Assembly: GCF_000568255.1 (NCBI RefSeq) | Contig: NZ_KK037166.1 | Location: 1,401,119-1,446,262, forward strand | Length of the DNA: 45,144 nt | Direction: 5' to 3' | Origin: Kutzneria sp. 744 | GTDB taxonomy: Bacteria; Actinomycetota; Actinomycetes; Mycobacteriales; Pseudonocardiaceae | Translations under genes and position numbers: made by a program | Shown: one piece after another, positions 11,087 to 26,856 of the stretch | Layout of the letters: every line of letters starts with the position of its first letter | Position numbering within the stretch: the first letter of the stretch is position 1 | Notes under the pieces: generated by a model | The model's database searches: none | The model's input: the letters and a program-made list of their open reading frames with translations, nothing else | Told to the model about the DNA's origin: nothing

Positions 11087-11839
11087 ATGAGCGACTCGTC
11101 CGCCGTCCTGCCGGGGTATCCGGACCCGCTGTGGATCCAGGCGGTCACCCTCGTGCGCGGGGAGATCGAGCGCGGGATCCTGAAGCCGGGCATGCGCCTG
11201 GCGCCGGAACGCGAGCTGTGCCAGCAGCTGGGCATCAGCCGGGTCACGCTGCGCCGCGCGCTCGGGCACCTGGTCGAGGAAGGCGTGCTGAGCGCGTCTC
11301 GGGGCCGCGGCTGGTACGTGAGCCAGGCGGTGCAGCCACGCAAGGAGTGGCCCAACACCCTGGAGTCGTTCACCGAGACGGCCGCTCGAATGGGCCTGCG
11401 ACCGCGCTCCGAGGTGCTGCAGAGCCGGGTCGATCCGGCGACCATCGACCAGGCCGAGCAGCTGGGCATCGCGCCGGGCACGCAGCTGTTCACGCTGGAA
11501 CGGGTGCGGCTGCTCAACAACATGCCGATCGGCCTCGACCTGACCCGCCTGCCCCTGGCGCTGGCCCCGTACCTGTCCACGCTCGACTTCGGCGAGCGGT
11601 CCCTGTACGCGGCGCTGGCCGAGGCCGGCGTGGAGCCGGTGCGGGCGGACTCGACCATCGAGGCCACCAAGGCCGACGACCGCACCGCCCGGCACCTGGA
11701 GATCGAGCCGGGCGAGCCGATCCTCGTCATGCACCAGCTGGCCCTGAACGCCGGCCAGGAGCCGCTGTTCACGTCGACGATCCGCTATGCCGGCGAGCGC
11801 TACCGCCTGCGCACGTCGTTCAGCCGGACTACGGGTTGA
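11087..11839 (+). CDS. GntR-family regulator with UTRA effector domain (GntR1)
   Basis: 250 residues. The N-terminal GntR winged HTH spans about residues 12-80 (RLAPERELCQQLGISRVTLRRAL), followed by a UTRA ligand domain (about 90-245) as in HutC/DasR-type repressors that sense sugar phosphates or related metabolites. It is a close paralogue of the GntR at 20403: blocks such as WPNTLESF-x-ETA-x-RMG, the ISRVTLR recognition helix and the C-terminal STIRYAG-x-RYRLRTSF are shared. It diverges from the YdhF-like reductase, and its 3' end overlaps the convergent dehydrogenase gene by 11 nt (11829-11839). No GGTAT operator was found in its own upstream region. Confidence 0.9.
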   Translation: MSDSSAVLPGYPDPLWIQAVTLVRGEIERGILKPGMRLAPERELCQQLGISRVTLRRALGHLVEEGVLSASRGRGWYVSQAVQPRKEWPNTLESFTETAARMGLRPRSEVLQSRVDPATIDQAEQLGIAPGTQLFTLERVRLLNNMPIGLDLTRLPLALAPYLSTLDFGERSLYAALAEAGVEPVRADSTIEATKADDRTARHLEIEPGEPILVMHQLALNAGQEPLFTSTIRYAGERYRLRTSFSRTTG

Positions 11840-12756
11840 CCAGCACGCCCTTGACGAAGTCGGGGCCGGCGGCCGCCATCGCGGCGAAGGCCTCGTCGAC
11901 CTGGTCGAGGGTGTACCAGTGGGTGACCAGCGGGGCGTAGCTGAAGCGGCGCTGGGCGATCAGCTCCAGGGCGACCGCCATGGCGGCGATGGTGCGGGTG
12001 CGGTCGGGGCAGAAGCCGTTGACCACGGTGACGGCCTTGTACCAGAGGTCCATGTCCATCTTGGCGTCGCCGGTGTGGTGGTAGCCGACGACGTTGAGCG
12101 TGCCGAACGGCCGGACCAGGCGGCCGGCGGTGGCCAGGCCGGGCGTCACGCCGGTGGCCTCCAGCACCACGTCGAACCGGGTGCCGAGGTGTTCGTCCGG
12201 AACCTCGTCGGGCGCGAAGGCGAGGTCCGCGCCCAGGGCGAGGGCCCGCGCGCGGCGGGCCGGGTCGGGGTCGACGCCGACGAGCAGACCGGGGGCATGC
12301 CGCTTGGCCAGCTGCACCAGAACCCAGCCCCATGAAGCCGAGACCGACCACGGCGGCGCGGCTTCCGGCGGCGACCGGCGACCGGGAAAGCGCTTCCTCC
12401 AGGACGGCGACCGGCTCGCCGAGGGCGTGAGCGGGCTCGACACCGGGCGGAACGGGCAGCAGCGCGGCACTGTCCATTACGGCCAGTGACGCGAAGCCCT
12501 CGCCGCCGAGCCCGGTGACGAGGTCGCCGACGTTCCACCGGGTCGCCTCGGAGCCGACGGCGGCCACTCGCCCGGCGATCTCGTGGCCGAGACGCATCGG
12601 CGCCGCGCTCGGATCGTGGTCGCGCCAGGCCGAGAGGTCCGACGTGCAGACACCGCAGGCCAGCACCTCGACCAGCACCTGGTGGTCGGCCGGCGTGGGA
12701 TCGGGCCGCTCGACGACCTCGGACGTGCGCGGTCCGACCAGCTGGCTGAATCTCAT
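11829..12756 (-). pseudogene. Zinc-less MDR alcohol dehydrogenase-like gene with a 1-nt frameshift
   Basis: Starts at the ATG at 12756 (GGAG six bases upstream). Frame 1 encodes an MDR N-terminal domain (LACGVCTSDLSAWRDHD, MRLGHEIAGRVAAVG) and runs to the nucleotide-binding motif VVGLGFMGLG. The other reading frame then continues exactly where the family continues (VLVQLAKRHAPGLLVGVDP, GTLNVVGYHHTGD, ending VKGVLVNP at 11829). One extra G in the G-runs at 12323-12331 accounts for the shift. The four-Cys structural-zinc loop is absent, as in many sugar-alcohol MDRs. It is either a recent pseudogene or a sequencing error; everything else looks intact. It diverges from the ABC importer and shares its GGTAT sites. 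Confidence 0.82.
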
Positions 12757-12770
12757 GCTCGTCTCCGAGT

Positions 12771-12785
12771 GGTTTGAAGTGGTAT
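12771..12785. promoter_or_regulatory. GGTAT-type operator repeat upstream of the dehydrogenase gene
   Basis: GTGGTTT and GTGGTAT stand exactly 10 bp apart in direct orientation, 15-30 bp before the dehydrogenase ATG, with further GGTGGATTGGT downstream of them on the plus strand. The same half-site recurs at 12903-12928, 20343-20358 and 24794-24799, suggesting one regulator, probably a GntR of this locus. Confidence 0.5.
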
Positions 12786-12902
12786 GCGGTGGATTGGTGA
12801 CCTGTCGCACGCCGGAACCCTGCCCAGGATGCTCTCATCACGGTTTCATACCGTCACTACTCTGTTCAGCCGCTAGACAGTACCGTGCCGTCTGTCCACT
12901 CT

Positions 12903-12928
12903 GGTATGCCGTGGTATGCATCTGGTAC
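12903..12928. promoter_or_regulatory. Triple GGTAT/GGTAC direct repeat upstream of the ABC operon
   Basis: GGTAT (12903-12907), GGTAT (12913-12917) and GGTAC (12924-12928) repeat every 10-11 bp, placing them on one face of the helix 33-58 bp before the permease ATG. Further upstream lies an inverted repeat ACGGT-5 nt-ACCGT (12840-12854). The core TGGTAT matches each arm of the palindrome before gntR2. Likely operator of the transport operon; promoter boxes could not be assigned. Confidence 0.55.
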
Positions 12929-12960
12929 GTCGTCCGTCAGGGCGTGAAGGGAGCCGAGCC

Positions 12961-13935
12961 ATGCGCACCGTGCTCAGGAAGCTCGGCTTCTACCTGCTCA
13001 CGGCCTGGGTCGCGATCAGCCTGAACTTCCTGATCCCCCGGGTCATGCCGGGCGACCCGGCCGAGCACCTGATCAACCAGTTCCACGGCAAGCTCGGGCC
13101 GGCGGCCATCCAGGCCCTGCGGGTCCTGTTCGGACAGCCGGACGCCAGCCTGTGGACCCAGTACCTCAACTACTGGCACAGCATCCTGACCGGCGACTTC
13201 GGCATCTCCTACGCCTACTACCCGACCGACGTGGGCACGGTGCTGGGCCAGAGCATGTTCTGGACGCTGGGCCTGATCACGGCCTGCACCATCCTGGGTT
13301 TCGTGATCGGCACCGGCCTGGGCATCCTGGCCGGCTGGAAACGCGGCACCTGGCTGGATTCGCTGATACCGGTGACCACGTTCCTGTCGTCCATCCCGTA
13401 CTTCTGGTTCGCCATCATCATCGTGCTGGTCTTCTCGATCACGCTGAACTGGTTCCCGCTGTCCGGCGGCTACTCGGTCGACACCACCATCGGCTTCAGC
13501 GGCGACTTCATCGCCAGCGCGCTGTACTACGCGGTGCTGCCGGCGGCGACCATCGTGATCACCTCGGTCGGCGGCTGGCTGATCAGCATGCGCAACATGA
13601 TGGTGACCACGCTGTCCGAGGACTACGTGCGGCTGGCCGAGGCCAAGGGCCTGTCCCGGCGCCGGGTCATGTACAAATACGCGGCCCGCAACGCGATGCT
13701 GCCGTCACTGTCGGGTTTCGCGATGTCGCTGGGCTTCGTGATCGGCGGCTCCATCGTCACCGAGGTGGTCTTCAACTACCCCGGCCTCGGCACCACGCTG
13801 TTCAAGGCGGCGCAGGCCGCGGACTACCCGCTGATGTCGGCCATCTTCCTGCTGATCACGATCATGGTGCTGGTGGCCAACCTGCTCGCGGACGTCGTCT
13901 ACGTGTTCCTCGACCCGAGGACGAGGGAGGGCTGA
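12961..13935 (+). CDS. ABC importer permease, DppB/OppB type
   Basis: 324 residues from the ATG at 12961, which is preceded by GAAGGGAG. It has an N-terminal TM helix, the family motif NFLIPRVMPGDPAEHL, five further TM segments and the coupling-helix (EAA) motif region EDYVRLAEAKGLSRRRVMYKYAARNAMLPS at about residues 220-250. This fold belongs to the peptide/opine/nickel uptake permeases, a family that also imports beta-linked oligosaccharides such as chitobiose. First gene of the transport operon; the next gene starts 2 nt after its stop. Confidence 0.93.
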   Translation: MRTVLRKLGFYLLTAWVAISLNFLIPRVMPGDPAEHLINQFHGKLGPAAIQALRVLFGQPDASLWTQYLNYWHSILTGDFGISYAYYPTDVGTVLGQSMFWTLGLITACTILGFVIGTGLGILAGWKRGTWLDSLIPVTTFLSSIPYFWFAIIIVLVFSITLNWFPLSGGYSVDTTIGFSGDFIASALYYAVLPAATIVITSVGGWLISMRNMMVTTLSEDYVRLAEAKGLSRRRVMYKYAARNAMLPSLSGFAMSLGFVIGGSIVTEVVFNYPGLGTTLFKAAQAADYPLMSAIFLLITIMVLVANLLADVVYVFLDPRTREG

Positions 13936-13937
13936 TC

Positions 13938-15934
<1,997 letters not shown>

Positions 15935-15938
<4 letters not shown>

Positions 15939-16951
15939 CCGCACCGGTGTTGGAGGCCGTCGACGTCACGAAGCACTTCCCGGTGCGCGGCCTGGTCAAG
16001 CGGGGCGCGGGGCGGGTCGTGCACGCCGTGGACAACGTGTCGCTGAAGCTCTACTCGGGCCGGATCACCGCCCTGGTCGGCGAATCCGGCTCGGGAAAGT
16101 CCACCCTGGCCCGCCTGCTGGCCCAGCTCTACCCGCTGACCAGCGGCGAGATCCGGCTGCACGGAAACCCCGTGCAGGCCACCAAGGGCAAGGCGTTCCG
16201 CGAGCACGTCAGCAAGGTGCAGCTGATCCTCCAGGACCCGTTCGCCTCGTTCAACCCGGTCGCCTCGATCGCCAGCACGCTGCGCCGCGCGGTGTCCATC
16301 CACCACGCCGGCAAGGGCGGTGACGAGCAGCTGGCCGTGATCGACGACCTGCTGACCCAGACCAATCTGGCGCCGCCACGGCAGTTCACCCAGAAGTTCC
16401 CGCACGAGCTGTCCGGCGGCCAGCTCCAGCGGGTCTCCATCGCCCGCGCGCTGGCGGCGAGCCCCGAGGTGTTCCTGGCCGACGAGCCGGTGTCCAGTTT
16501 GGACGTCTCGATCCGGCTGGGCATCCTCAACCTGTTGCGGCGCTTGACCGAGGAGCGTGACGTGGCCATGCTCTACGTCACCCACGACATCGCCTCGGCC
16601 CGCTACTTCGCCGCCGACACCGCCGTGATGTACGCCGGCGAGATCGTGGAGACCGGCCCGTCGGAGACCGTCACCCAGCAGGCCGCGCACCCGTACACGC
16701 AGCTGCTGATCTCCTCCGCGCCCGATCCGTCCCGCACGGATGTCAAGCGGGTCAAGGACATCGGGCAGCCGCCGAGCCTGATCTCCCCGCCCAGCGGCTG
16801 CCGGTTCCACCCGCGCTGCCCCTTCGCCATGGCCCGCTGCAGGGAAGAAAAACCGCCGCCCTTCGAACTCGCCGACGGCCACACCGCACGGTGCTGGCTG
16901 TACGCGGACAACCCTGAGCCCGCCGCGTCAGAAAGGCCCGATGCGCAGTGA
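15935..16951 (+). CDS. ABC importer ATPase, DppF/OppF type
   Basis: 338 residues with Walker [10 protein letters not shown] (about 50-58), a Q-loop in [12 protein letters not shown], signature LSGGQLQR, Walker [13 protein letters not shown], switch YVTHD, and the C-terminal oligopeptide-type motif [15 protein letters not shown]. It would pair with the ATPase half of the fusion protein to drive one importer. It overlaps the genes on both sides by 4 nt. Confidence 0.93.
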
Positions 16952-18597
16952 CCACCCCGGTTCAGCTCACCAGAAGGAACCTGTTGGCGGGCATGCTCGC
17001 CACCGCCGGCGGCCTCGCGCTGGCCGCCTGCTCGCCCGGCGGCTCGTCGTCGTCGGCCAACGGCCTGACCGTCACCGTCGCGGGCCAGTCCGACAACCTC
17101 ACCCAGGTGTTCAACCCGTTCCTGGAGAACACCGCCCTCGGCGTGACCTACAACGGCTCCTTCATCTACGAGCCGCTGGTGCAGATCAACACCGCCGACA
17201 TCGGCAAGGACATCCCGTGGCTGGCCAAGTCCTGGGAGTGGTCGGACGACAACAAGACGTTCACGGTCACGTTGCAGGACAACGTGAAGTGGTCCGACGG
17301 CAAGCCGTTCTCGGCCGATGACGTGGTGTTCTCCTACCAGATGCTGAAGAAGTACCCGGCGCTGAACCTGCAGGGCGTGCCCGACAACGAGGTCAGCTCG
17401 CCGGCGCCGAACAAGGTCGTGTTCACCTTCAAGGACCCGTCGCAACAGCTGTTCCCGAGCATCGTGTCGGCGCCGATCGTGGCCAAGCACCTGTGGGAGT
17501 CGGTCAAGGACCCCACCACCTACCAGGACCCGAACCCGGTCGGCACCGGCGCGTTCAAGATCGGCACGTTCTCGCCGCAGAGCCTGCTGCTGACCCGCAA
17601 CGACGACTACTGGCAGACCAAGGCGGCCATCGCGGCGATCCGCTTCGTGCCGTACAAGGACAACTCCACCATCACCAACGCGATGGTGCAGGGCCAGGCC
17701 GACTGGGCCGGCGCCTACATCGCCAACGCGGACAAGACCTTCACGTCCAAGAACAAGAACTACCACTTCTGGGCGCCGCGGGCCGGCACCGACGGCCTCA
17801 TCCCGAACCTGGAGCGCTGGCCGCTGTCGGACATCGCGGTGCGCAAGGCGATCAGCCTCGGCGTGAACCGCAAGCAGGTGGCCGCGGCCAGCGGCGAGCA
17901 GCCGGCGACCAGCGTCACCGGCCTGCCGCTGCCGACCTACAAGTCCTCGGTGGCCAAGGCCTACGACGGGGTCGGCTTCGTCGAGGACAAGAACAAGGCC
18001 ATGCAGACCCTGGAGGCCGCCGGCTACGCCAAGGCGAGCGACGGCTACTACGCCAAGGGCGGCAAGCGGGTCGAGTTCAGCTGCAGCTTCCCGGCCTCCT
18101 ACACCGAGATCGCCGCGCGCGTGCAGGTGCTGGTGTCGCAGCTCAAGGACATCGGCATCAAGTTGAACATCGACACCACCACCGTGGACGACATCAACCC
18201 GCGCACGGCCAAGGGCGACTTCGACTCCACCATGGGCTATCCGGTGAGCCCGACGCCGCGGGCGTTCTCGTTCTACAACGACACCATCAACCCCAACCTG
18301 TACTACCCGATCGGCCAGTCCACGCCCTCGTTCCAGAACATCGAGCGGTTCAAGGACGACGAGGCGGCCGAGCTGTTCAAGCAGTACCCCCTGGCCACCA
18401 CCGACGAGCAGCGGCAGCAGATCCTGGACAAGATCGAGAAGGTGTTCGTGGAGAAGCTGCCGTGGATCCCCATGTTCTACTGGGGTTCCTACAGCAGCTG
18501 GAGCACCGCCAAGGTGACCGGCTTCCCCGACGAGAACAGCCCCTACTTCACCGCGGTGCCCAACGTGGTGGTGGCGCTGAGGCTGAAGCCGGCGTGA
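16948..18597 (+). CDS. Family-5 extracellular solute-binding lipoprotein
   Basis: 549 residues from a GTG overlapping the previous stop. The N-terminus has a twin-arginine signal (TRRNLLAG) followed by a lipobox LAAC with Cys28, so it should be exported folded by Tat and lipid-anchored. A low-complexity Gly/Ser spacer follows. The body has the SBP_bac_5 landmarks ([59 protein letters not shown]). Family 5 binds peptides, nickel and also oligosaccharides such as chitobiose (Vibrio CBP) and cellobiose. The gene neighbours point to a sugar ligand. Confidence 0.92.
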
Positions 18598-19358
18598 CCG
18601 CCGATCTCGCCGTCATGGCGTACACGGTGCTCGATCAGGCCCGCGCCGATCTCGACGGCACGTTGGCCCGGCTGGCCGAGATCGGCTACCGGGGCGTCGA
18701 GACCTACGGCCTGGTCGAGCACTTCGGTCCGGCGCGGGTACGGGGCGCGCTGGACGCGGCCGGGCTGGCCGTGACGAGCGCGCACGTGCCGTTCCCGGCC
18801 GGCCCGGACGCGGAGTCCATCCTGGACCAGAACCAGGAGCTGGGCGCCGAGGTCCTGGTGTGGAGCATGGAACGGGAGGAGTTCGACTCGCCGGACGCGA
18901 TCAAGCGCGGCGTGCAGCGGGTGAACGTGGCGGCCGAGCACGCCGCCGCCCGGGGCATGAAGATCGCCTACCACAACCACTTCGCCGAGTTCTCCCAGTT
19001 CTTCGACGGCGTGCAGGCCTACGACCTGTTGTTGGCATCGATGGACGAGCGGGTGCTGCTGGAGCTCGACGCGTACTGGGCGGTCCTCGGCGGCGCCGAT
19101 CCGGCCGAGATCCTGACCCGGCTCGGCGACCGCGTTCGGTTCATCCACATCAAGGACGGGCCGGCCCTCAGCTACGAAGACGACGTGATGGTGCCGATCG
19201 GCGAGGGTCGGATCGACTGGCGCACAACGCTGTCCGTGCCGTCCGGGCTGCGCTGGCACATCGTCGAGCTGGAACGGCTGCACATCGACACGTTCGAGGC
19301 GCTGCAACGCAGCTATGACCACCTGGTCGGCAACGGGCTCTCGTTGGGGGCGCGATGA
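18594..19358 (+). CDS. TIM-barrel sugar phosphate isomerase/epimerase family protein
   Basis: 254 residues from a GTG overlapping the solute-binding protein stop by 4 nt. It has the AP-endonuclease-2 barrel pattern: [10 protein letters not shown], metal-site residues in [10 protein letters not shown] (His), [13 protein letters not shown] (Glu/Asp), [11 protein letters not shown] (His, Asp) and the final HIVELE glutamate. Members interconvert ketoses or act on inosose and 3-keto sugars. Translational coupling to the importer argues that it works on the imported sugar or a derivative. The exact reaction cannot be read from sequence. Confidence 0.87.
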
Positions 19359-20344
19359 AGGTGCTGTTCCTGGGCGGGGCCGGCATGATCGGCTCCGCCT
19401 GCGCGGACGAGGCGGTGGCCTCCGGTCTGGACGTCACCGTCGTCACGCGCACCGAACCGAAGCGGCAGCCGCCGCCCGGGGTCCGCGCGCTGCGGGCCGA
19501 CGTCCGGGACGCCGAGCAGCTGCGGCACGCCCTGGACGACGAGGACTTCGACGCGGTCGTGAACTGGGTCGGCTTCACGGTCGACGATGTTCGTGCGCAT
19601 CCGGAGGTCTTCGCCGGGCGCACCGGGCAGTACGTGTTCATCAGCACCTGCTCGGTGTTCGCTAGGCCGGTGCCGCAGCTGCCGGTGACCGAGTCGACGC
19701 CGCGCCGGCAGCCGGTGTTCGGCTATCCCCGCGGCAAGATCACGTGCGAGGTGTTCCTGGAGAACGCTTTCCGGGACAGCGGCTTCCCGCTGACGATCAT
19801 CCGGCCGGCGCACGTCTACGACCGGACCGTGGTGCCGGTGCTGGCCGGCTGGACCGCGATCGACCGGATGCGGGCCGGCAAGCCCGTCGTCGTGCACGGC
19901 GACGGCACCTCGCTGTGGACGTTGATGCACTCCCGGGATTTCGCGCGGGCCTTCGTGCCGCTGCTGGGCAACGGGCACGCCGTCGGCGAGAGCGTGAACG
20001 TGGTCTCCGGGGACATCCTGACCTGGGACCAGATCCACCTGGAGCTGGCGTCCGCCGCCGGCGTGCGGGAACCGGCGCTGCGGCACCGGTCCAGCGAGAC
20101 CATCGCCGAGGTGCTGCCGGGCTGGCGGGACGTGCTCCAGGAGGACTTCCGGCACTCGATGTTCTTCGACACCGGCAAGCTGCGGTCCCTGGTGCCGGAC
20201 TTCGCGCCGGCGGTGTCGTTCGCGGAGGGCGCCCGGGAACTGGTCGCCCACCACGACGAGGAGCCCCGGTTGCGCTCGGTCGACGAGGAGCTGAATTCCG
20301 CGTTCGATCGCCTCATCGAGCAGACCGATACAAGACCAAAGTAA
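19355..20344 (+). CDS. NAD-dependent epimerase/dehydratase (extended SDR)
   Basis: 329 residues. The Rossmann motif GGAGMIGS is at residues 8-15, an active-site YPRGK (YxxxK) near residue 127, and IRPAHVY afterwards, as in UDP-hexose epimerase-like SDRs and the atypical NAD-binding sugar enzymes. It overlaps the isomerase gene by 4 nt and is the last gene of the ABC operon. It probably oxidises, epimerises or dehydrates the imported sugar; nucleotide-sugar use is not demonstrated. Confidence 0.87.
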   Translation: MKVLFLGGAGMIGSACADEAVASGLDVTVVTRTEPKRQPPPGVRALRADVRDAEQLRHALDDEDFDAVVNWVGFTVDDVRAHPEVFAGRTGQYVFISTCSVFARPVPQLPVTESTPRRQPVFGYPRGKITCEVFLENAFRDSGFPLTIIRPAHVYDRTVVPVLAGWTAIDRMRAGKPVVVHGDGTSLWTLMHSRDFARAFVPLLGNGHAVGESVNVVSGDILTWDQIHLELASAAGVREPALRHRSSETIAEVLPGWRDVLQEDFRHSMFFDTGKLRSLVPDFAPAVSFAEGARELVAHHDEEPRLRSVDEELNSAFDRLIEQTDTRPK

Positions 20345-20358
20345 TACCACTTGGTATT
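20343..20358. promoter_or_regulatory. Perfect 16-bp palindrome, likely GntR operator
   Basis: AATACCA-CT-TGGTATT, two perfect 7-bp arms, begins within the last codon of the SDR gene and lies 31-46 bp before the leader ORF start. Each arm contains the TGGTAT core found as direct repeats before the ABC operon. Position and symmetry fit autoregulation of gntR2. Confidence 0.7.
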
Positions 20359-20388
20359 CTGGTCACCCGCCGACAGGAGGTACAGCCG

Positions 20389-20406
20389 ATGCAGGGGCCC
20401 GTGTGA
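20389..20406 (+). other. Five-codon leader ORF (MQGPV) before gntR2
   Basis: A consensus AGGAGG (20375-20380) sits 8 nt before an ATG that opens a five-codon ORF ending in TGA (20404-20406). That stop overlaps the GTG start of gntR2 (20403) as GTGA. The gntR2 GTG has only a weaker AGGGG (20393-20397), so ribosomes loading on the leader may reinitiate on gntR2. The pentapeptide itself need not have a function. Confidence 0.5.
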
Positions 20407-21164
20407 CCGCCGAACAGCCGGTGCTGCCCGCCGCCTACCCGGAGCCGCTGTGGACGCAGGCGGCGTCGCTGCTGCGCACGCGGATCGCGGACGGCGAGCT
20501 GCGCCCCGGCGCGCGGCTGCCACCGGAGCGGGACCTCTGCCAGCAGCTGGCCATCTCCCGGGTGACGCTGCGCAAGGCCCTGTCCGCGCTGGTCGACGAG
20601 GGTGTGCTGCGCTCGGCCCACGGCCGCGGCTGGTACGTCACCTCACCCGAGCGCGGCGACTGGCCCAACACCCTGGAGTCGTTCTCCGAGACCGCCCGCC
20701 GGATGGGTCTGGCGCCCACGTCCACCGTGCTCCGCGCCGCGGCCGCCCCGGCCAGCTTTGACGAGGCCGAGGCCTTCCAGATCGCGCCCGGCACCCCGCT
20801 GTTCCGCCTCGACCGCGTCCGCCTGCTCGACGGCGTGCCCATCGCCGTGGACGAGTCCGTGCTGCCCACCGACGTCGCTGAGGACTTCGGCCGGCTGGAC
20901 TTCACCACCGCGTCCCTCTACGAGATCGTCTCCGGCCGCGGTTTCCAGCTGGCCCAGGCCGACACCACCATCGAGGCCCGCCCGGCCACCGCGGCCGTCG
21001 CCGAGCACCTGGACGTGCCGGAGGCCACGCCCATCCTGCAGATGCGCCAGGTGGTCCGGGACCGCTCCGGCCGCCCGCTGCTGTCCTCCACCATCCGGTA
21101 CGCGGGCGACCGCTACCGGCTGCGCACGTCCTTCACGAGAAATGCAGGAACGGAGCAGACATGA
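20403..21164 (+). CDS. GntR-family regulator with UTRA domain (GntR2)
   Basis: 253 residues from the GTG at 20403. GntR winged HTH at about residues 12-80 (RLPPERDLCQQLAISRVTLRKAL), then a UTRA domain whose C-terminal ...STIRYAGDRYRLRTSF is nearly identical to GntR1. It begins a second operon with the SIS and kinase genes (4-nt overlap at 21161-21164). The palindrome at 20343-20358 is its most likely autoregulatory site; ligands of UTRA repressors are often sugar phosphates such as GlcN-6-P, which would suit the downstream enzymes. Confidence 0.9.
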   Translation: MTAEQPVLPAAYPEPLWTQAASLLRTRIADGELRPGARLPPERDLCQQLAISRVTLRKALSALVDEGVLRSAHGRGWYVTSPERGDWPNTLESFSETARRMGLAPTSTVLRAAAAPASFDEAEAFQIAPGTPLFRLDRVRLLDGVPIAVDESVLPTDVAEDFGRLDFTTASLYEIVSGRGFQLAQADTTIEARPATAAVAEHLDVPEATPILQMRQVVRDRSGRPLLSSTIRYAGDRYRLRTSFTRNAGTEQT

Positions 21165-22171
21165 TCGACGGCTTCATCGCCTACACGCGGGCCCGCGCCA
21201 CTCAGGCGGCGGACCTGGCGGCGGCGGTCGACCGTCTGGCCGGCTCGGTGGCGGAGCTGGCCTCTGGGGGTCGTTTTTCCGGTCCTGGACCGGTGTTCGT
21301 GGGGATCGGGGCGAGCCTGGCGGCGGCGTGTGCGCCGGTGTGGGCGCTGCGGTCGCGGGGGATCCACTCGTGGCGGCTGGGGGCGGGTGACCATCCGCTG
21401 CCGTTCCCGCCGAGCACGCATCCGGTGTTCGGGGTGTCGCAGAGCGGGCGCAGCGCGGAGACTCTGGCGGTACTGGAGACGATCCCGTTCGCCAAGCGGT
21501 ACGCGGTGGTCAACGTGGTGCCGTCGCCGATCGCGGACCTCGCGTCGGGCCTGGTCGATCTGGGCAACATCGCCGACAGCTACGCCTCCACCATCGGCTT
21601 CACGGCCACGGTGGCGGCGCTGGGGCTGATCGCCGACGCCTGGCACGGAGGCAAGATCGACGACGGTTGGGCGTGCATCGGCGACGTGGTGGCGACCATC
21701 GACCGCGACCAGGGGCCGCGGATCCGTGCGCTGGCCCCGTTGTTCGCCGCGGCGACGTCGGCGGACTTCGTCGGGGCGGGGCCGTTCGTGGGGTCGGCCG
21801 AGGCCGGCGCGCTGCTGTTCCGTGAGGTGGCGCGCATTCCGTCCACGGGCATGAGCACCCGCCAGTACCTGCACGGCTCCATGGAGTCCGCGGGTGGCGG
21901 CGTGCACGTGCTGTTCGGCGGCGACCGCGAGCTCGCCGCCGCGGAGACGCTGGCCGCGGCCGGTCATCCGACGATCCTCGTGACCAGCGAGGACATCGAC
22001 GCCGGCCCGCTCGTGCACACCGTGCGCCTGCCGGCCCTGTCTCCCGCACAGGCCGCCATCGCCCAGATCGTGGTCGTGCAGATCCTGGTCGAGGCCGTCG
22101 CCGCCCTCCGCGGCGTGGCCATCGAGGAATTCGTGTTCCACAACAACGACATCAAGGTGCCGGGACTATGA
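21161..22171 (+). CDS. Double-SIS-domain sugar isomerase / aminosugar deaminase-like protein
   Basis: 336 residues. The first SIS domain carries VFVGIGASLAAAC and the phosphosugar loop SQSGRSAET at about residues 93-101; a second SIS half starts near residue 190 (FVGAGPFVGSAEAGALLFREV) and includes the GlmS-like HGSMES. This architecture is that of the GlmS isomerase half, AgaS and NagB-II glucosamine-6-phosphate deaminases, without a glutaminase domain. Coupled by 4-nt overlaps to gntR2 and a BadF-type kinase, it could convert a phosphorylated aminosugar to fructose-6-phosphate plus ammonia. Isomerase-only activity is the alternative. Confidence 0.82.
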   Translation: MIDGFIAYTRARATQAADLAAAVDRLAGSVAELASGGRFSGPGPVFVGIGASLAAACAPVWALRSRGIHSWRLGAGDHPLPFPPSTHPVFGVSQSGRSAETLAVLETIPFAKRYAVVNVVPSPIADLASGLVDLGNIADSYASTIGFTATVAALGLIADAWHGGKIDDGWACIGDVVATIDRDQGPRIRALAPLFAAATSADFVGAGPFVGSAEAGALLFREVARIPSTGMSTRQYLHGSMESAGGGVHVLFGGDRELAAAETLAAAGHPTILVTSEDIDAGPLVHTVRLPALSPAQAAIAQIVVVQILVEAVAALRGVAIEEFVFHNNDIKVPGL

Positions 22172-23064
22172 GAGTTGTGGTCGGGGTCGACGTCGGAGGC
22201 ACGAAGGTCGCGGTGCGGGTCGCGACGCTGGACGGGAAGGTGGTGGGCGACCACCAGTGGCCGGCGGACGCGTGGTCGGCGACGCCGGTGGGGGCGGCGG
22301 CGCGGTGGCTGCGGTCGGTGCTGTCGCTGGCGGTGCCGGAGGAGGACGAGATCGTCGCCGCGGGCATCGGGGCGCAGGGGTGCGACACGCAGCAGCACTG
22401 CCACGAGCTGGCGGAAGCGCTTGGGGCCCTTGGGGTGCGGGCGACGGTGGTCAACGACGCGCAGCTGCTGGTGCCGGCGGCGGGACTGGAGCGCGGCATC
22501 GGCGTGATCGCCGGCACGGGCTCCATCGCCCTCGGCGCGGACGCCAACGGCACGGCGCTGTACGCGGGTGGCTGGGGATGGGTGCTCGGCGACGAAGCGA
22601 GTGCGCCGGCCATTGTCCGGGAGGCGACGAAGGCGGCCCTGGCGGCGTACGACGATCGCCGGCCGGATGACGGCCTGATGCGGGCGCTGCTGGAGCACTA
22701 CGCGGTCCCGGACCCGCCGGCCCTGGCGCGGGCGGTCAACGATGTGCCGACGCCGGAGAACTGGGGTCCGGGCGCGGCGGCGGTGTTCGAGGCGGCCCAC
22801 GGGGGTTCGACGTTGGCGGCGCGGGTGGTCGACGAGGCGGCCCGAGGCCTGAAGCTGTTGGTGTGTCAGCTGATCGCCCGCGGCGCGGTCGGCGACACGG
22901 TGGTGGCGGCGGGCAGCGTGATCGTCAACCAGCCGCGCCTGGCCGAGCGGTTCCGGGCCCGGCTGGCCGACTTCTACCCCTCGCTGTCGCTGCGACTGCT
23001 GGACGTGCCGCCGGTGGCCGGCGGTGTGGTCCTCGCGCTACGAATGCTTACGCCCCAACACTGA
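22168..23064 (+). CDS. BadF/BadG/BcrA-type ATPase, N-acetylglucosamine/glucosamine kinase-like
   Basis: 298 residues of the ASKHA fold. Phosphate-1 motif VGVDVGGTK (residues 4-12), an acidic catalytic region VVNDAQLL, phosphate-2 motif VIAGTGSIALG, then GGWGWVLGDEASA, the signature of NagK/GspK-like sugar kinases in this family. Expected reaction: ATP-dependent 6-phosphorylation of GlcNAc or GlcN in the cytoplasm. The ATG overlaps the SIS stop by 4 nt. Its own TGA abuts the convergent GH9 stop in the sequence TGATCA (23062-23067), leaving no intergenic space. Confidence 0.86.
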   Translation: MRVVVGVDVGGTKVAVRVATLDGKVVGDHQWPADAWSATPVGAAARWLRSVLSLAVPEEDEIVAAGIGAQGCDTQQHCHELAEALGALGVRATVVNDAQLLVPAAGLERGIGVIAGTGSIALGADANGTALYAGGWGWVLGDEASAPAIVREATKAALAAYDDRRPDDGLMRALLEHYAVPDPPALARAVNDVPTPENWGPGAAAVFEAAHGGSTLAARVVDEAARGLKLLVCQLIARGAVGDTVVAAGSVIVNQPRLAERFRARLADFYPSLSLRLLDVPPVAGGVVLALRMLTPQH

Positions 23065-24756
23065 TCACCGCAGCAGGGACGCCGCCAGCAGGAACCAGGC
23101 GGAGTGCGGGATCCACTGCTCGGCCCAGCGCCACGCATTGCCGGCGGCCACCGGGGCGGGCGGCATGAAGTCGATGTCGTGCTCGTCGGCGAACCCGGCG
23201 GTGATGCCGTTGAGGATGCCGCCGGGCACGTTCTTGAAGATGGCGTGGTACTCGGGGGTGTTGCGGCCCCGGCCCTGCAACATGCAGCTGTCGAACGGGT
23301 TCAGGCCGAGCACCCAGTGCACCTGGTCGTCGGCCAGCACCTGAAGGCGCTCACGCAGTTCGTCGTCGCACTCGGGCTGGGCGGCGGTGACCAGGGCGGC
23401 GTAGGCGGCGGAGCAGATGCCGGCGTTCTCGCCCTGCCACCAGTAGCCGGTCTCGTTGCCGTGCGGGAAGAAGAAGCTGGTGCGCGGTTCCTCCCCCTTG
23501 GGCTGCACGTACTGCCGGTTGACGCCGAACGGGTTGTCCACTTCCTCGTTGAGGCGCACGGCATCCCGGGCCAGCGCCAGCGCGGTGACGCGGGCCTGGG
23601 CGGCGACCGGGGAGTCGGGGCAGACCTCGGCGAAGCGGAGCAACGCGATGATCGGCAGGCCCGGCTCGGCGGCGTGGAAGAACGGCCGGCCCTCGACGTC
23701 GCCGACGAGGTAGCCGAAGCCGGGACCGTTGGTGTAGCGGGAGATCAGCGACGTGGCCCGGGATTCCGCCGCCGACACCAGGCTTTCACCGGCATTGACC
23801 AGCTCCGCGGCGGCCAGCAGGGCGCAGTAGTCGTCGATGACGCTCTCGGTGCCGTCGAAGCTGTACTCGGTGTTGTGCTCCCGCAGGTGATCGAAGCCGC
23901 GGCGGGCCGTCCGCAGGTACTCGGCCTGGGTGAAGTCGCCGCTGACCTCGGACATCGAGGCCCGGGCCAAGGCGGCGACGGCCAGACCCCCGCCGTGACG
24001 GAAGGCGGCCTGCCAGCGCTGGGTGCGGACGCTGTCCTGGAGCGGAGCGTTGATCACGCGCTCGTCGAGGTTCTTGGTCAGCGCGTCGAAGATGCCGGTG
24101 TAGAAGTAGCCCTCGGGCGCCTGGAAGCGAACCAGGAAGTCGGCGCCGTGCAGGCCCTCGTCCCGCAGCTTCGCCCCCAGCGCGTCGGACAGGGCCGGGT
24201 CGGTGGCGCGCAGGTTGTCCCGGGCGGCGAAGAAGGCCCACGCGCACAACGGGATCTGCTGCGGGCTCATCATCCGCGTGTACGTGAGGTGGCTGAGGAA
24301 CTTGCTGAAGTCGCCGGAGGCGTCCAGCCAGCCGCCGCGGGCGTCGACCGTGCGGCCCGAGTCGTCGTCGTAGAAGCGGGCGGCGCGGTCCTTGCGGTCG
24401 ATCTCGCCGGTGGAGCGGACCGCGCGGAAGTAGTTGACGCAGTCGGACATCGCGGTGGCCGGCACGGCCTTGTCGGCGACGGCGAACGGCAGCGAGCGCT
24501 GAAGTCCTTCCGCCGTCCCGATCTCGACCTGGTACGTGCCTGGCTCGCGGGCGCTGCTGAAGTCGAGACGGCGGAAGGAGCCGACCGACCAGCGGTCCAC
24601 GGTCACCTCGGGACCCGGCGTCAGCTCCAGCCGCGTGCCGTCCGCGCCCACCAACGCTGCCGAGCGAATCTCGGTGGGTTCGGTGTGCAGCAGCACGGCC
24701 TTCTTGCTGCCGGCGGAGTCGTAGCCGAGGTGACTGGTCAGGATCGTGGTCGGCAC
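23065..24756 (-). CDS. Cytoplasmic GH9 glycoside hydrolase (exo-glucosaminidase/beta-glucosidase type)
   Basis: 563 residues from the GTG at 24756. An N-terminal Ig-like CelD_N domain (about 5-95) precedes the GH9 alpha-barrel. The catalytic motif reads GGWLDASGDFSKF at about 141-153 (the DASGD variant of DAGD, with Asp145 and Asp149), and the general-acid region is near QGENAGICSAAY. There is no signal peptide, so it acts inside the cell on an imported oligosaccharide, unlike secreted cellulases. Known intracellular GH9 enzymes of this type include the Vibrio glucosaminidase in the chitobiose operon. It has an apparently leaderless promoter overlapping a GGTAT site. Confidence 0.87.
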   Translation of the reverse strand: MPTTILTSHLGYDSAGSKKAVLLHTEPTEIRSAALVGADGTRLELTPGPEVTVDRWSVGSFRRLDFSSAREPGTYQVEIGTAEGLQRSLPFAVADKAVPATAMSDCVNYFRAVRSTGEIDRKDRAARFYDDDSGRTVDARGGWLDASGDFSKFLSHLTYTRMMSPQQIPLCAWAFFAARDNLRATDPALSDALGAKLRDEGLHGADFLVRFQAPEGYFYTGIFDALTKNLDERVINAPLQDSVRTQRWQAAFRHGGGLAVAALARASMSEVSGDFTQAEYLRTARRGFDHLREHNTEYSFDGTESVIDDYCALLAAAELVNAGESLVSAAESRATSLISRYTNGPGFGYLVGDVEGRPFFHAAEPGLPIIALLRFAEVCPDSPVAAQARVTALALARDAVRLNEEVDNPFGVNRQYVQPKGEEPRTSFFFPHGNETGYWWQGENAGICSAAYAALVTAAQPECDDELRERLQVLADDQVHWVLGLNPFDSCMLQGRGRNTPEYHAIFKNVPGGILNGITAGFADEHDIDFMPPAPVAAGNAWRWAEQWIPHSAWFLLAASLLR

Positions 24757-24792
24757 CGCACCGACGGTAGCCCACGGCCCGCCTTGGTTCAA
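24756..24792 (-). promoter_or_regulatory. Leaderless promoter of the GH9 gene
   Basis: On the minus strand, TTGAAC (24792-24787) and TACCGT (24769-24764) are separated by exactly 17 bp. The GTG begins 8 nt after the -10, so transcription should start at the start codon. No Shine-Dalgarno is present. A GGTAT half-site (24795-24799) abuts the -35 upstream. Confidence 0.7.
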
Positions 24793-24820
24793 CTGGTATG
24801 GCTCTGGACTTACCTTTGTA

Positions 24821-24858
24821 TTGTCGACGCCGCCCATTCTCGGTAGCGTCGGTGGCTG
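24821..24858 (+). promoter_or_regulatory. Leaderless promoter of the ThuA-like gene
   Basis: TTGTCG (24821-24826), 17-bp spacer, TAGCGT (24844-24849), then a GTG at 24858, 9 nt on. This mirrors the divergent GH9 promoter, and no Shine-Dalgarno is seen. The shared region between the two -35 boxes holds the GGTAT half-site and a TTACC at 24810-24814. Confidence 0.65.
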
Positions 24859-25595
24859 TGAAGCTGCGCGCCATCCCGTCCACGCTGGTGCTCGTCGACG
24901 GGACCGATCTGCACCACGACCTGATCGGCGCCGCACTGGCGCTGCAGGAGATCGTCACCGAGGCCGGGCTGCCGGCGGCGCGGGGCGTCGGCGTGCACCG
25001 CTTCGCCGATCCCATGCCCGCCACCGCCGAGGCCGACGTCTATGTGTTGTACCTGTCCGGGCCGCGGTTCGACCCGGCCGAGCAGCAGGCGCTCTCCGAC
25101 CTGGTGGCCGCCGGCAAGGGCCTGGTCGCCATCCACGCCAGCAACCTGTTCGGCTTCGGCCCCGGCGGCATCGAGGCGGACCGCGCCGGTGTCGACCTGG
25201 TCGGCTCTCGCTACCTCTCGCACGGCGACGCCGGCTCCGAGGGCCGGTTCGAGGTGCGGGTCAAGGCCGGACACCCGGTCACCCGCCACCTCGGCGACTT
25301 CGCCATCGACGACGAGTACTACCTGATCGACTGCCGGCCCGACATCGAGGTGTTGGCCGAGCGGGACACCCCGGCCGGGCCGCAGCCCATCGCGTACGTG
25401 CGGGAGCACGGGCAAGGCCGGGTCTGCTACACGGCGCTGGGCCACGATCCCCGCGCCTGGGGCAATCCCTGGTTCCGACAGCTGGTCCGGCAGGCCGTGC
25501 TGTGGACGGCCGGCGTGCCCGAGCAGGACATCGAGACCTGGTCCACCCGCTGGCCGCTGGGCAACGGCCGCTTCGTCGACCGGCCGTCCACTTAG
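24858..25595 (+). CDS. ThuA-like (trehalose-utilisation/GATase1-like) domain protein
   Basis: 245 residues from the GTG at 24858, chosen because a promoter leads directly into it; an in-frame ATG at 24798 would lie upstream of that promoter. It has the ThuA fold pattern: ADVYVLYLSGPRF, LVAAGKGLVAIHASNLFGF (nucleophile-elbow region without the Cys of true amidotransferases), SRYLSHGDAGSEGRFEVRV, HPVTRHLGDF, DDEYYLI and YTALGHDPRAWGNPWFRQLV. ThuA proteins take part in 3-keto-sugar and disaccharide pathways; their chemistry is poorly defined. Divergent from GH9 and presumably co-regulated. Confidence 0.83.
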   Translation: MKLRAIPSTLVLVDGTDLHHDLIGAALALQEIVTEAGLPAARGVGVHRFADPMPATAEADVYVLYLSGPRFDPAEQQALSDLVAAGKGLVAIHASNLFGFGPGGIEADRAGVDLVGSRYLSHGDAGSEGRFEVRVKAGHPVTRHLGDFAIDDEYYLIDCRPDIEVLAERDTPAGPQPIAYVREHGQGRVCYTALGHDPRAWGNPWFRQLVRQAVLWTAGVPEQDIETWSTRWPLGNGRFVDRPST

Positions 25596-25652: not shown

Positions 25653-26678
25653 TCAGGCCGCCGGCGGCGCCGTCGAGTCGCGCACTATCAACTCCGTGGC
25701 CAGCTCCACGTGCAGCGCCTCCAGCTGATGCCGTTCCAGCAGCCGCATGAGCAGGGTGACGGCCATCCGCCCCATCTCCTCCAACGGCTGCCGCACGGTG
25801 GTGAGCAGAGGCCGCGTGGCACGGGCGAGGTCGATGTCGTCGAAGCCGGCGACCGACAGGTCCTGTGGCACGCGCAGTCCCAGGCGGGCGGCGGCGGACA
25901 TGGCGCCGACGGCCATCTTGTCGTTGAAGCCGATCAGCGCGGTCGGCCGGTCGGGCAGGCCGAGAAGCTCGGTGGCCAGCCGGAAACCCTCCTCGGTGGT
26001 GGGTTCGCCGCTGCGGATCAACGCGGGCGGGGTGAGCACGCCGACCTCGGCCAGCGCGGCGGCGTGGCCGGCGCGGCGGGCGTCGGCGGCCAGCCAGTTG
26101 CCGGGGCCGGCGATGATGCCGATGCGGCGGTGCCCGAGCTCCAGCAGGTGCTGGGTGAGCCGCCGGGCGCCGGTGAAATGGGCGGCGGAGACGGCGGCGA
26201 TGTCCCGGGGCAGGTTGGTGCGGGGATCGATGACGACAAAGGGAAAACCGGAGCCGCGCAGGGCCAGCAGCTGCTCACTGGGCTCGGGCGGCAGCAGCAT
26301 GATGGCGCCGGCGACGCCGCTCATCAGCGACAGTCCGGGCAGCACGGCCTTGCGCTGGGCGGCTTCACCGGCGTTGAGCAGCAGGCGTCGGCCGTGCAGG
26401 TCGAGGGTCTCGGCCACCGAGGACACGATCAGTCCGAAGTAGTCGCTGAGCACGTACGGGCAGTGCACGTACACCGCGCCCTCGGCGATCCGGTTGCGGC
26501 GGGCGCGCGGCACGGGGGCGAGCCCGCCGAGGCGCTCGATGGCCGCCAGCACCAGGTCGCGGGTGGGCGGCGCGACGTCCTCGCTGTCGTTGAGCACGCG
26601 TGAGACGGTCGCGATGGACACCCCGGCGTCGGCCGCGATGTCCCGCACGGTGGCCCGCCCCCCGCCGCGCCTAGCCAT
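25653..26678 (-). CDS. LacI-family transcriptional regulator
   Basis: 341 residues from the ATG at 26678. LacI HTH at residues about 9-30 (ATVRDIAADAGVSIATVSRVLND) with the hinge region, then a periplasmic-binding-like sensor domain (about 70-335). It diverges from the secreted GH30 gene, so it most likely represses it until a breakdown product binds. Candidate operators are the 19-bp palindrome at 26742-26760 and the TGTTYCA repeats on both sides of the intergenic region. Confidence 0.92.
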   Translation of the reverse strand: MARRGGGRATVRDIAADAGVSIATVSRVLNDSEDVAPPTRDLVLAAIERLGGLAPVPRARRNRIAEGAVYVHCPYVLSDYFGLIVSSVAETLDLHGRRLLLNAGEAAQRKAVLPGLSLMSGVAGAIMLLPPEPSEQLLALRGSGFPFVVIDPRTNLPRDIAAVSAAHFTGARRLTQHLLELGHRRIGIIAGPGNWLAADARRAGHAAALAEVGVLTPPALIRSGEPTTEEGFRLATELLGLPDRPTALIGFNDKMAVGAMSAAARLGLRVPQDLSVAGFDDIDLARATRPLLTTVRQPLEEMGRMAVTLLMRLLERHQLEALHVELATELIVRDSTAPPAA

Positions 26679-26679
26679 T

Positions 26680-26699
26680 TGTTTCAGCCCCGTGTTTCA
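26680..26699. promoter_or_regulatory. Paired TGTTTCA repeats at the lacI-like start
   Basis: TGTTTCA at 26680-26686 and 26693-26699, 13 bp apart, directly before the LacI-gene ATG (26678). The same heptamer with one change occurs three times before the GH30 gene, suggesting a shared regulator with autoregulation. Confidence 0.45.
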
Positions 26700-26741
26700 T
26701 TTCGGCAGTCTAACTCCGCGCTCCGATTCAGGGCACACATT

Positions 26742-26760
26742 TGTGAACACCCGGTTCACA
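26742..26760. promoter_or_regulatory. 19-bp perfect palindrome, putative LacI operator
   Basis: TGTGAAC-5 nt-GTTCACA with two perfect 7-bp arms, ending 6 bp before a consensus -35 TTGACA (26766-26771) of the GH30 promoter. The spacing to a TTTGCT -10 (26790-26795) is 18 bp. The location fits repression or activation of GH30. Confidence 0.65.
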
Positions 26761-26810
26761 CGGCGTTGACAGTGCCGAGGAGCGACTGCTTTGCTGTCCG
26801 CGCCGGCAAT

Positions 26811-26838
26811 TGTTCCAGTTCTGTTCCATTTTGTTTCA
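26811..26838. promoter_or_regulatory. Phased TGTTYCA direct repeats before GH30
   Basis: TGTTCCA (26811-26817), TGTTCCA (26822-26828) and TGTTTCA (26832-26838) recur at 11- and 10-bp steps, one helical turn, in the untranslated leader downstream of the predicted -10. A regulator bound here would block elongation or initiation. Confidence 0.5.
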
Positions 26839-26856
26839 GGACCTCGGGAGGGGCCG

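What the first reader, a model, noticed from the sequence alone, without database searches (positions are those of the whole stretch)
12757..25595. Chitobiose/(GlcN)2-type utilisation locus built around a peptide-type ABC importer
A family-5 solute-binding lipoprotein with Dpp-like permeases and ATPases is followed by a SIS-domain enzyme, a BadF/GspK-like kinase and an intracellular GH9. The Vibrio chitobiose/(GlcN)2 operon combines a Dpp-type transporter with a GH9 glucosaminidase and a BadF-family glucosamine kinase. Here the set is extended by a TIM-barrel isomerase, an SDR, a ThuA-like protein and two GntR regulators, so the imported dimer may be a modified or keto-sugar. Most actinomycetes take up chitobiose with a family-1 (DasABC/NgcEFG) importer, so this would be a different route.
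Basis: partly seen in the sequence, partly recalled or inferred. Interest (0 to 1): 0.7.

Follow-up and report, generated by a model that had tools for sequence, protein, structure and literature searches.

The report
Actinobacterial GH9 amino-sugar breakdown locus
A soil actinobacterium, probably a Kutzneria, carries genes that appear to import and dismantle an amino-sugar disaccharide much as marine Vibrio bacteria do with chitin fragments, but with a reshaped enzyme pocket, a different binding protein and an extra set of sugar-converting enzymes, so the real substrate may be a modified sugar.

Summary
The locus holds a family-5 binding lipoprotein with Dpp-type permeases and ATPases, then TIM-barrel, SDR, GntR, SIS and BadF genes; a GH9 without signal peptide lies on the other strand, divergent from ThuA. 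A zinc ADH also belongs to the set, but is frameshifted here. A palindrome before the second GntR gene, and its half-sites in the ADH/permease and GH9/ThuA promoter regions, suggest one regulon. The GH9's only PDB sequence relatives are three Vibrionaceae exo-glucosidase/glucosaminidases; SIS is closest to GlmS/NagB-II and BadF to NagK-type kinases. This supports amino-sugar catabolism.

Plain (GlcN)2 is less certain. The three residues placed around the C2 amino group in the Vibrio enzyme are changed in 50 of 50 actinobacterial GH9s examined, and the binding protein is not a CBP orthologue and keeps few CBP contacts. The 'extras' are conserved: ThuA+TIM+SDR occur in 15 of 47 actinobacterial GH9 loci, 14 of these with SIS and BadF, while the importer type swaps. 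But 13 of 47 GH9 loci show none of these partners nearby. Best reading: a GlcN-type pathway for a modified amino-sugar disaccharide; new variant of a known kind.

The parts
11087..11839 (+).
   Evidence: next to the ADH gene in L095, L096, L097
11829..12756 (-). zinc-dependent alcohol dehydrogenase gene, reading frame broken near 12,322-12,332
   Evidence: one-frame homologues in L095, L096, L097, L101, L102; 83% nucleotide identity to L095/L096
12763..12960 (.). ADH/permease promoter region with TGGTAT half-sites at 12780, 12902, 12912
12961..13935 (+). Dpp/Opp-type permease B
   Evidence: PF00528, 148 bits
13938..15938 (+). permease C fused to ATPase D, 666 aa in one frame
   Evidence: same fusion in S. 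sulfonofaciens L097 1244-3292
15935..16951 (+). Dpp/Opp-type ATPase F with oligo_HPY tail
16948..18597 (+). family-5 solute-binding lipoprotein; TRRNLLAG (Tat-like) and LAAC lipobox read from the sequence
   Evidence: PF00496 240 bits; best PDB hit 1zty 4.2e-56; family alignment A3
18594..19358 (+). xylose-isomerase-like TIM barrel with AtOGE-type metal and catalytic residues
   Evidence: PF01261; 8bvk 7.7e-21; alignment; residues from PMC10628242
19355..20344 (+). SDR, NAD-dependent epimerase/dehydratase family
   Evidence: PF01370; best PDB hit 7ys8 1.3e-10
20343..20358 (.). palindrome AATACCACTTGGTATT before GntR2, candidate operator
   Evidence: only exact copy in the 11.6-Mb genome; kept exactly in L015 and L016
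20403..21164 (+). GntR2, HutC/UTRA-type regulator
21161..22171 (+). SIS-domain enzyme, predicted GlcN-6-phosphate deaminase of GlmS/NagB-II type
22168..23064 (+). BadF/NagK-type amino-sugar kinase
23065..24756 (-). exo-acting GH9, no signal peptide, probable GTG start at 24756
24757..24857 (.). divergent GH9/ThuA promoter region with TGGTAT half-site at 24794
24858..25595 (+). ThuA-family protein, probable GTG start at 24858
   Evidence: PF06283; family alignment A4

Best explanation
A catabolic regulon for a beta-linked amino-sugar disaccharide, probably a modified one. A family-5 lipoprotein and a Dpp-type ABC importer take it up. The cytoplasmic exo-GH9 removes the non-reducing residue. BadF phosphorylates the released amino sugar and SIS deaminates the 6-phosphate to fructose 6-phosphate. 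ADH, SDR, the OGE-like TIM barrel and ThuA convert the other, oxidised or otherwise modified, residue so that it can enter the same route. GntR2 and/or GntR1 repress the set through the AATACCA-NN-TGGTATT palindrome and TGGTAT half-sites. Shown by computation: families, catalytic residues, gene linkage, shared motif. Inferred: every substrate and the order of reactions.
For: GH9 matches only the three Vibrionaceae exo-GH9 structures and keeps D140, D144 and E546 equivalents (50 of 50 actinobacterial sequences); VC0615 cleaves (GlcN)2 faster than cellobiose and not (GlcNAc)2 (PMC6096475). SIS profile: GlmS 2e-18, NagB-II 5e-16, FrlB-like 3eua 3e-10; E222, H238, K332 invariant in 24 of 24. BadF: NagK model matched by 21 of 21. 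ThuA+TIM+SDR in 15 of 47 actinobacterial GH9 loci, 14 of the 15 with SIS and BadF beside them. TIM keeps the AtOGE residues. Half-sites in three promoter regions. Three GH46 chitosanases in the genome, one 16.5 kb past the window; GH20 in 10 of 47 loci.
Against: No substrate is known. GH9 pocket residues at C2 differ from Vibrio. NagK and NagB-II scores are far below curated cut-offs (52 of 370 bits; 21 of 430 bits). 13 of 47 actinobacterial GH9 loci have none of the partners in the fetched stretch, and 9 of 35 GH9-bearing genomes have no SIS at 1e-15, 10 of 35 no BadF. In three genomes (G415, G419, G426) the SBP5-SIS-BadF set stands apart from GH9. Relatives carry a copper amine oxidase beside SIS that this pathway does not explain; this genome has none. 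The ADH is frameshifted here.
Confidence: 0.55

Rival explanations
1. Plain chitosan-dimer locus: (GlcN)2 (or GlcN-GlcNAc) is imported, split by GH9, phosphorylated and deaminated; TIM, SDR, ThuA and ADH serve a separate, co-regulated pathway.
For: Vibrio GH9 activity (PMC6096475); chitosanases in the genome; loci with GH9+SIS+BadF but without the trio, e.g. L044, L053, L055, L058, L061.
Against: C2 pocket changed in 50 of 50 actinobacterial GH9s; SBP contacts differ; trio tightly linked in 15 of 47 loci and sharing the half-site promoter with GH9 here.
Confidence: 0.2
2. Amadori (fructosamine) catabolism of frl type: SIS is a FrlB-like deglycase, TIM an FrlC-like epimerase, GntR an FrlR-like regulator, with amine oxidase in relatives for the freed amine.
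For: Same family mix as the frl operon (recalled); copper amine oxidase beside SIS in relatives; a Listeria SIS protein, 2aml, is the best single-sequence PDB hit.
Against: Profile and fold rank GlmS and NagB-II above FrlB-type deglycases (36.9 and 32.1 against 28.0); no FrlB model among the hits of 24 members; kinase is BadF, not PfkB; an exo-GH9 has no place; no amine oxidase in this genome.
Confidence: 0.08
3. Beta-glucoside or cellobiose-type locus: GH9 works as an exo-beta-glucosidase and BadF as a glucokinase, with the keto-sugar enzymes acting on a glucoside.
For: VC0615 also cleaves beta-glucosides (PMC6096475); C2 contacts of the GlcN site are lost; TIM resembles a 3-keto-glucoside eliminase; Thermotoga cello- and mannoside-type SBPs are next in line.
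Against: SIS with GlmS-type E, H, K has no role for glucose; best SBP hits are CBPs; GH20 neighbours in 10 of 47 loci.
Confidence: 0.12

Closest known systems
Vibrionaceae chitobiose/(GlcN)2 operon (CBP, Dpp-type importer, GH9, kinase, GH20)
   Same: SBP5 + PermB + PermC + two ATPases + exo-GH9 in a row in 19 of 20 Vibrionaceae loci (the 20th, L066, starts at a contig end); a kinase-size gene and GH20 follow (the kinase name is recalled).
   Different: Here permease C and ATPase D are fused, GH9 is on the other strand, SBP is another clade, the kinase is not close, SIS/TIM/SDR/ThuA/ADH are added, GH9 C2 contacts differ.
Streptomyces csnREFGHK chitosan-oligosaccharide locus
   Same: Actinobacterial ABC uptake of chitosan oligomers with intracellular hydrolase and kinase (PMC6097792, passages).
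   Different: Uses a ROK regulator and a GH4; neither is in this locus. GH4 occurs at three other places in this genome.
DasABC / NgcEFG chitobiose importers of streptomycetes
   Same: Uptake of amino-sugar dimers.
   Different: Family-1 importers for N-acetylated sugars (recalled; cited in PMC6097792 references). Here a family-5 importer.
3-keto-glycoside elimination pathways (AtOGE, C-glycoside eliminases, levoglucosan pathway)
   Same: TIM barrel with the AtOGE His132/His134/Asp163/His189/Glu233 equivalents next to oxidoreductases.
   Different: No Gfo/Idh oxidoreductase in the window set (it is present in relatives); GH9, kinase and SIS added.

Membership tests
exo-acting GH9 (VC0615/PBPRA0520/VP2484 group) | full-length similarity to the group rather than to endoglucanases | tested here: met
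   only 3h7l, 6gdt, 5dgq at E <= 0.01
exo-acting GH9 (VC0615/PBPRA0520/VP2484 group) | catalytic Asp140, Asp144, Glu546 | tested here: met
   50 of 50 actinobacterial sequences
exo-acting GH9 (VC0615/PBPRA0520/VP2484 group) | long alpha1-2 and alpha9-10 loops that close the site | tested here: met
   alignment runs through VC0615 112-162 and 404-442 with a 2-residue insertion as the only gap I see; by sequence only, no model
GlcN-specific GH9 glucosaminidase | C2-amino contacts Tyr148, Trp220, Tyr232 (VC0615) | tested here: not met
   Phe, Leu, gap in 50 of 50 actinobacterial sequences; Tyr, Trp, Tyr in 20 of 20 Vibrionaceae. PMC6096475 says these do not obviously explain the preference
GlcN-specific GH9 glucosaminidase | activity on (GlcN)2 | not testable with these tools
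   needs enzyme assay
Vibrio CBP (chitooligosaccharide-binding SBP5) | Asn204, Trp363, Asp365, Trp513 | tested here: not met
   Asn kept, Trp to Tyr, Asp to Glu, Trp513 in an alignment gap
Vibrio CBP (chitooligosaccharide-binding SBP5) | N-acetyl contacts Arg436 and Phe437 | tested here: not met
   Ser and Phe; the row varies among relatives
Vibrio CBP (chitooligosaccharide-binding SBP5) | orthology | tested here: not met
   own 11-row clade (99/100), Vibrionaceae six rows separate (100/100)
GlmS/NagB-II type GlcN-6-phosphate deaminase | GlmS-type catalytic Glu, His, Lys (E. coli numbering recalled) | tested here: met
   E222, H238, K332 invariant in 24 of 24
GlmS/NagB-II type GlcN-6-phosphate deaminase | curated model cut-off | tested here: not met
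   36 of 381 bits (GlmS subfamily), 21 of 430 bits (NagB-II)
3-keto-glycoside beta-eliminase (AtOGE type) | His132, His134, Asp163, His189, Glu233 | tested here: met
   YHNH in 18 of 18 rows, the others in all 17 rows that reach them
3-keto-glycoside beta-eliminase (AtOGE type) | Mn-dependent elimination activity | not testable with these tools
   needs enzyme assay
frl-type Amadori locus | FrlB-type deglycase | tested here: inconclusive
   GlmS and NagB-II rank higher; FrlB-type folds are still listed

The most novel reading that the evidence does not exclude
An undescribed actinobacterial pathway for an N-substituted or oxidised (keto/aldonic) amino-sugar disaccharide, in which hydrolysis by a GH9 with an opened C2 pocket, phosphorylation and deamination are combined with an ADH/SDR/OGE-like TIM/ThuA module (plus copper amine oxidase and Gfo/Idh enzymes in relatives), with interchangeable importers. 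ThuA would get its first role in amino-sugar breakdown.
Probability: 0.35. Interest if true: 0.65.

Novelty: new variant of a known kind. Interest (0 to 1): 0.5.

Why it matters
A 2018 review (PMC6097792, passage) states that GH9 glucosaminidases were not documented in actinobacteria in CAZy; here they are found in 47 actinobacterial loci among the 80 best of 237 related stretches. The uniform change of the C2 pocket gives a clean, testable prediction that the actinobacterial clade has another substrate, and bears on the open question in PMC6096475 of what sets GlcN preference in these enzymes. The constant company of ThuA, a family with little assigned chemistry (recalled), with an OGE-like TIM barrel and amino-sugar enzymes makes its role testable.

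Tried and rejected
MurQ etherase for SIS: no MurQ model among the hits, and GlmS-type E/H/K are present. Peptide or nickel importer: nickel- and dipeptide-binding chains score far below CBP (88 and 74 bits at best against 194). GH9 as cellulase: the own-genome cellulase-type GH9s score much higher with the Pfam model (514 to 216 bits against 57) and are not PDB relatives of this one. Own-genome GH9 paralogue (L008, 37%): different -1 site and a Tat-like leader; not a second copy. The predicted SBP structure is unusable (pLDDT 50.7), so the pocket comparison with CBP rests on alignment alone. The 9-mer ACTGGTATG is not enriched in the window as such (5 found, 2.9 expected, 19 of 100 shuffles reach 5); the motif claim rests on position (4 of 6 half-sites outside the palindrome lie in two promoter regions, binomial P 3e-8, 0 of 20,000 shuffles) and on conservation, and the motif was chosen after looking. 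With two mismatches the palindrome and its reversed control occur equally often in the genome. Aldo-keto reductase 10061-10981: found in L095 and L096 but in none of 11 other stretches scanned, so not counted as a part.

Errors of my own: I took the longest ORF for own-genome rows; L001, L003, L004 and L012, L013, L014 are probably wrong frames and were not used. In one search the label Dpp_trio was set by hand for L033, L039, L049 and L063; for L063 no stretch beyond the first was fetched. That tree is a quick one without bootstrap. My ORF caller hides or extends some genes; the tallies used are.
Full report
Observation. The window lies in an 11.6-Mb single-contig genome. Its nearest relatives are Kutzneria (GH9 89-90% identical in L015, L016), so it is probably a Kutzneria (inference). 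Pfam finds the named classes. The plus-strand run is permease B, permease C-ATPase D fusion, ATPase F, SBP5, TIM, SDR, GntR2, SIS, BadF; GH9 is minus-strand and divergent from ThuA. The GH9 protein starts directly with its Ig-like domain, as the Vibrio enzymes do, so no export signal is seen. The SBP has a Tat-like and lipobox leader.

Linkage. The GH9 scan of genome contigs gave 237 related stretches, of which the best 80 were kept; 47 are actinobacterial loci. A sample of 396 genomes of the phylum gave a match at 1e-30 only in the window's own genome, so the gene is rare. Among the 47: SBP5 in 9, ThuA 20, TIM 17, SDR 16, SIS 16, BadF 16, GH20 10; ThuA+TIM+SDR together in 15. Of these 15, five show SIS and BadF inside the stretch; for nine more the whole-genome searches place SIS and BadF at or just past its edge on the same contig (L019-L023, L025, L026, L042, L059); the last, L027, sits on a 9.5-kb contig and was not searched further. 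In L031 the SIS frame holds one stop and BadF is partial. In the family-1 type loci the order continues SIS-BadF-ADH (L101, L102). Against a fixed set: 13 of 47 loci (L018, L024, L028, L029, L030, L034, L036, L041, L045, L046, L047, L052, L054) have none of these partners in the fetched stretch, two of them on short contigs (L024, L041); 9 of 35 genomes searched have no SIS at 1e-15 and 10 of 35 no BadF.

Importer swap. The trio-plus-SIS/BadF set goes with an SBP5/Dpp importer in Kutzneria, Streptomyces sulfonofaciens and a Propionibacteriaceae MAG, and with a family-1-like importer and usually GH20 in Planotetraspora, Nonomuraea, Microbispora, Oerskovia, Actinopolymorpha and some streptomycetes. 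On a quick GH9 tree the SBP5 label needs four changes, so the pairing arose or was lost more than once. The SBPs of the window type form one clade of 11 rows apart from Vibrionaceae.

Copper amine oxidase. In 15 of 75 stretches (14 genomes) a PF01179 amine oxidase is found, mostly beside SIS, often with a second TIM barrel and a Gfo/Idh oxidoreductase. It is absent from the window, from L015 and L016, and from the window's whole genome. In three genomes (G415, G419, G426) the SBP5 set with SIS and BadF stands apart from GH9. This is the main fact that my explanation leaves open.

Active sites. Against VhCBP (PMC8449061, passages) the window SBP has, for E10, N204, S221, W363, D365, N409, F411, R436, F437, W513: Q, N, A, Y, E, P, S, S, F, gap. 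So it keeps a sugar-type site in part, but not the N-acetyl contacts as a set. In GH9 the catalytic Asp140, Asp144 and Glu546 are kept in 50 of 50 actinobacterial sequences (47 loci, two second copies, the window), while the residues placed within reach of the 2-amino group, Tyr148, Trp220 and Tyr232, are Phe, Leu and a gap in all 50; they are Tyr, Trp, Tyr in 20 of 20 Vibrionaceae, and Tyr/Trp in 12 of 13 others with Tyr or Phe at the third. The pocket is thus more open at C2. The paper itself doubts that these residues set the preference. SIS keeps E222, H238, K332 in 24 of 24. TIM keeps the AtOGE residues in every row that reaches them.

Regulation. AATACCACTTGGTATT (20343-20358) is the only exact copy in the genome, is expected 0.03 times in the window at up to three mismatches and is kept in L015 and L016. 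Of eight TGGTAT/ATACCA half-sites in the window, six lie in three intergenic stretches of 357 bases in all; without the palindrome, four of six. L015/L095, L016/L096 and L017/L097 have half-sites in the corresponding regions, and L015, L016 and L017 also have some elsewhere. The motif was picked after looking. Controls that do not support it are told under Tried and rejected.

ADH. The gene next to permease B is in one frame in L095, L096, L097, L101 and L102, but in the window its frame changes near 12,322-12,332. Sequencing error and real loss cannot be told apart.

Mechanism and novelty. The hydrolysis-kinase-deaminase branch follows from families and residues; the oxidoreductase-TIM-ThuA branch is inferred. 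The pathway works like the Vibrio (GlcN)2 system but fails two membership tests (CBP contacts and orthology, GlcN pocket). Papers: searches listed no work on actinobacterial GH9 glucosaminidases (titles and abstract starts only); a 2018 review says that they were not documented (PMC6097792, passages). Open-access papers only.

Noticed in passing
L017 14086-16041, L042, L056, L103, L104, L106, L107, L109, L110, L111, L112, L116, L118, L037, L038: AGAO-like copper amine oxidase, mostly beside SIS/BadF in relatives, often with a second TIM barrel and a Gfo/Idh oxidoreductase; absent from the window's genome.
   Followed up: partly
window 13938-15938: Permease C and ATPase D fused in one 666-aa frame; same in L097.
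   Followed up: partly
window 11829-12756: Zinc ADH gene with an apparent frameshift; in one frame in close relatives.
   Followed up: partly
G000:C1:3522719-3524422 (L008, L098): A second exo-type GH9 (37% identical) with a Tat-like leader and a changed motif, GGWYDAAADWGK, without the window's partner genes in the fetched 20 kb.
   Followed up: partly
G000:C1:1462808-1463461: GH46 chitosanase 16.5 kb past the window end; three GH46 in the genome.
   Followed up: no
window 25653-28284: A LacI-type regulator gene and, divergent from it, a secreted-looking gene that I read as GH30 (by eye, no family search), next to ThuA; both are also in L015 and L016.
   Followed up: no
window 10061-10981: Aldo-keto reductase (by eye) divergent from GntR1; a strong match in L095 and L096 only, of 13 stretches scanned.
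   Followed up: yes
L020 11741-12349 and nine other loci: GNAT acetyltransferase next to GH9 in 10 of 47 actinobacterial loci.
   Followed up: no
L060: An exo-type GH9 in a Hadesarchaea MAG, 44% identical to the window's.
   Followed up: no
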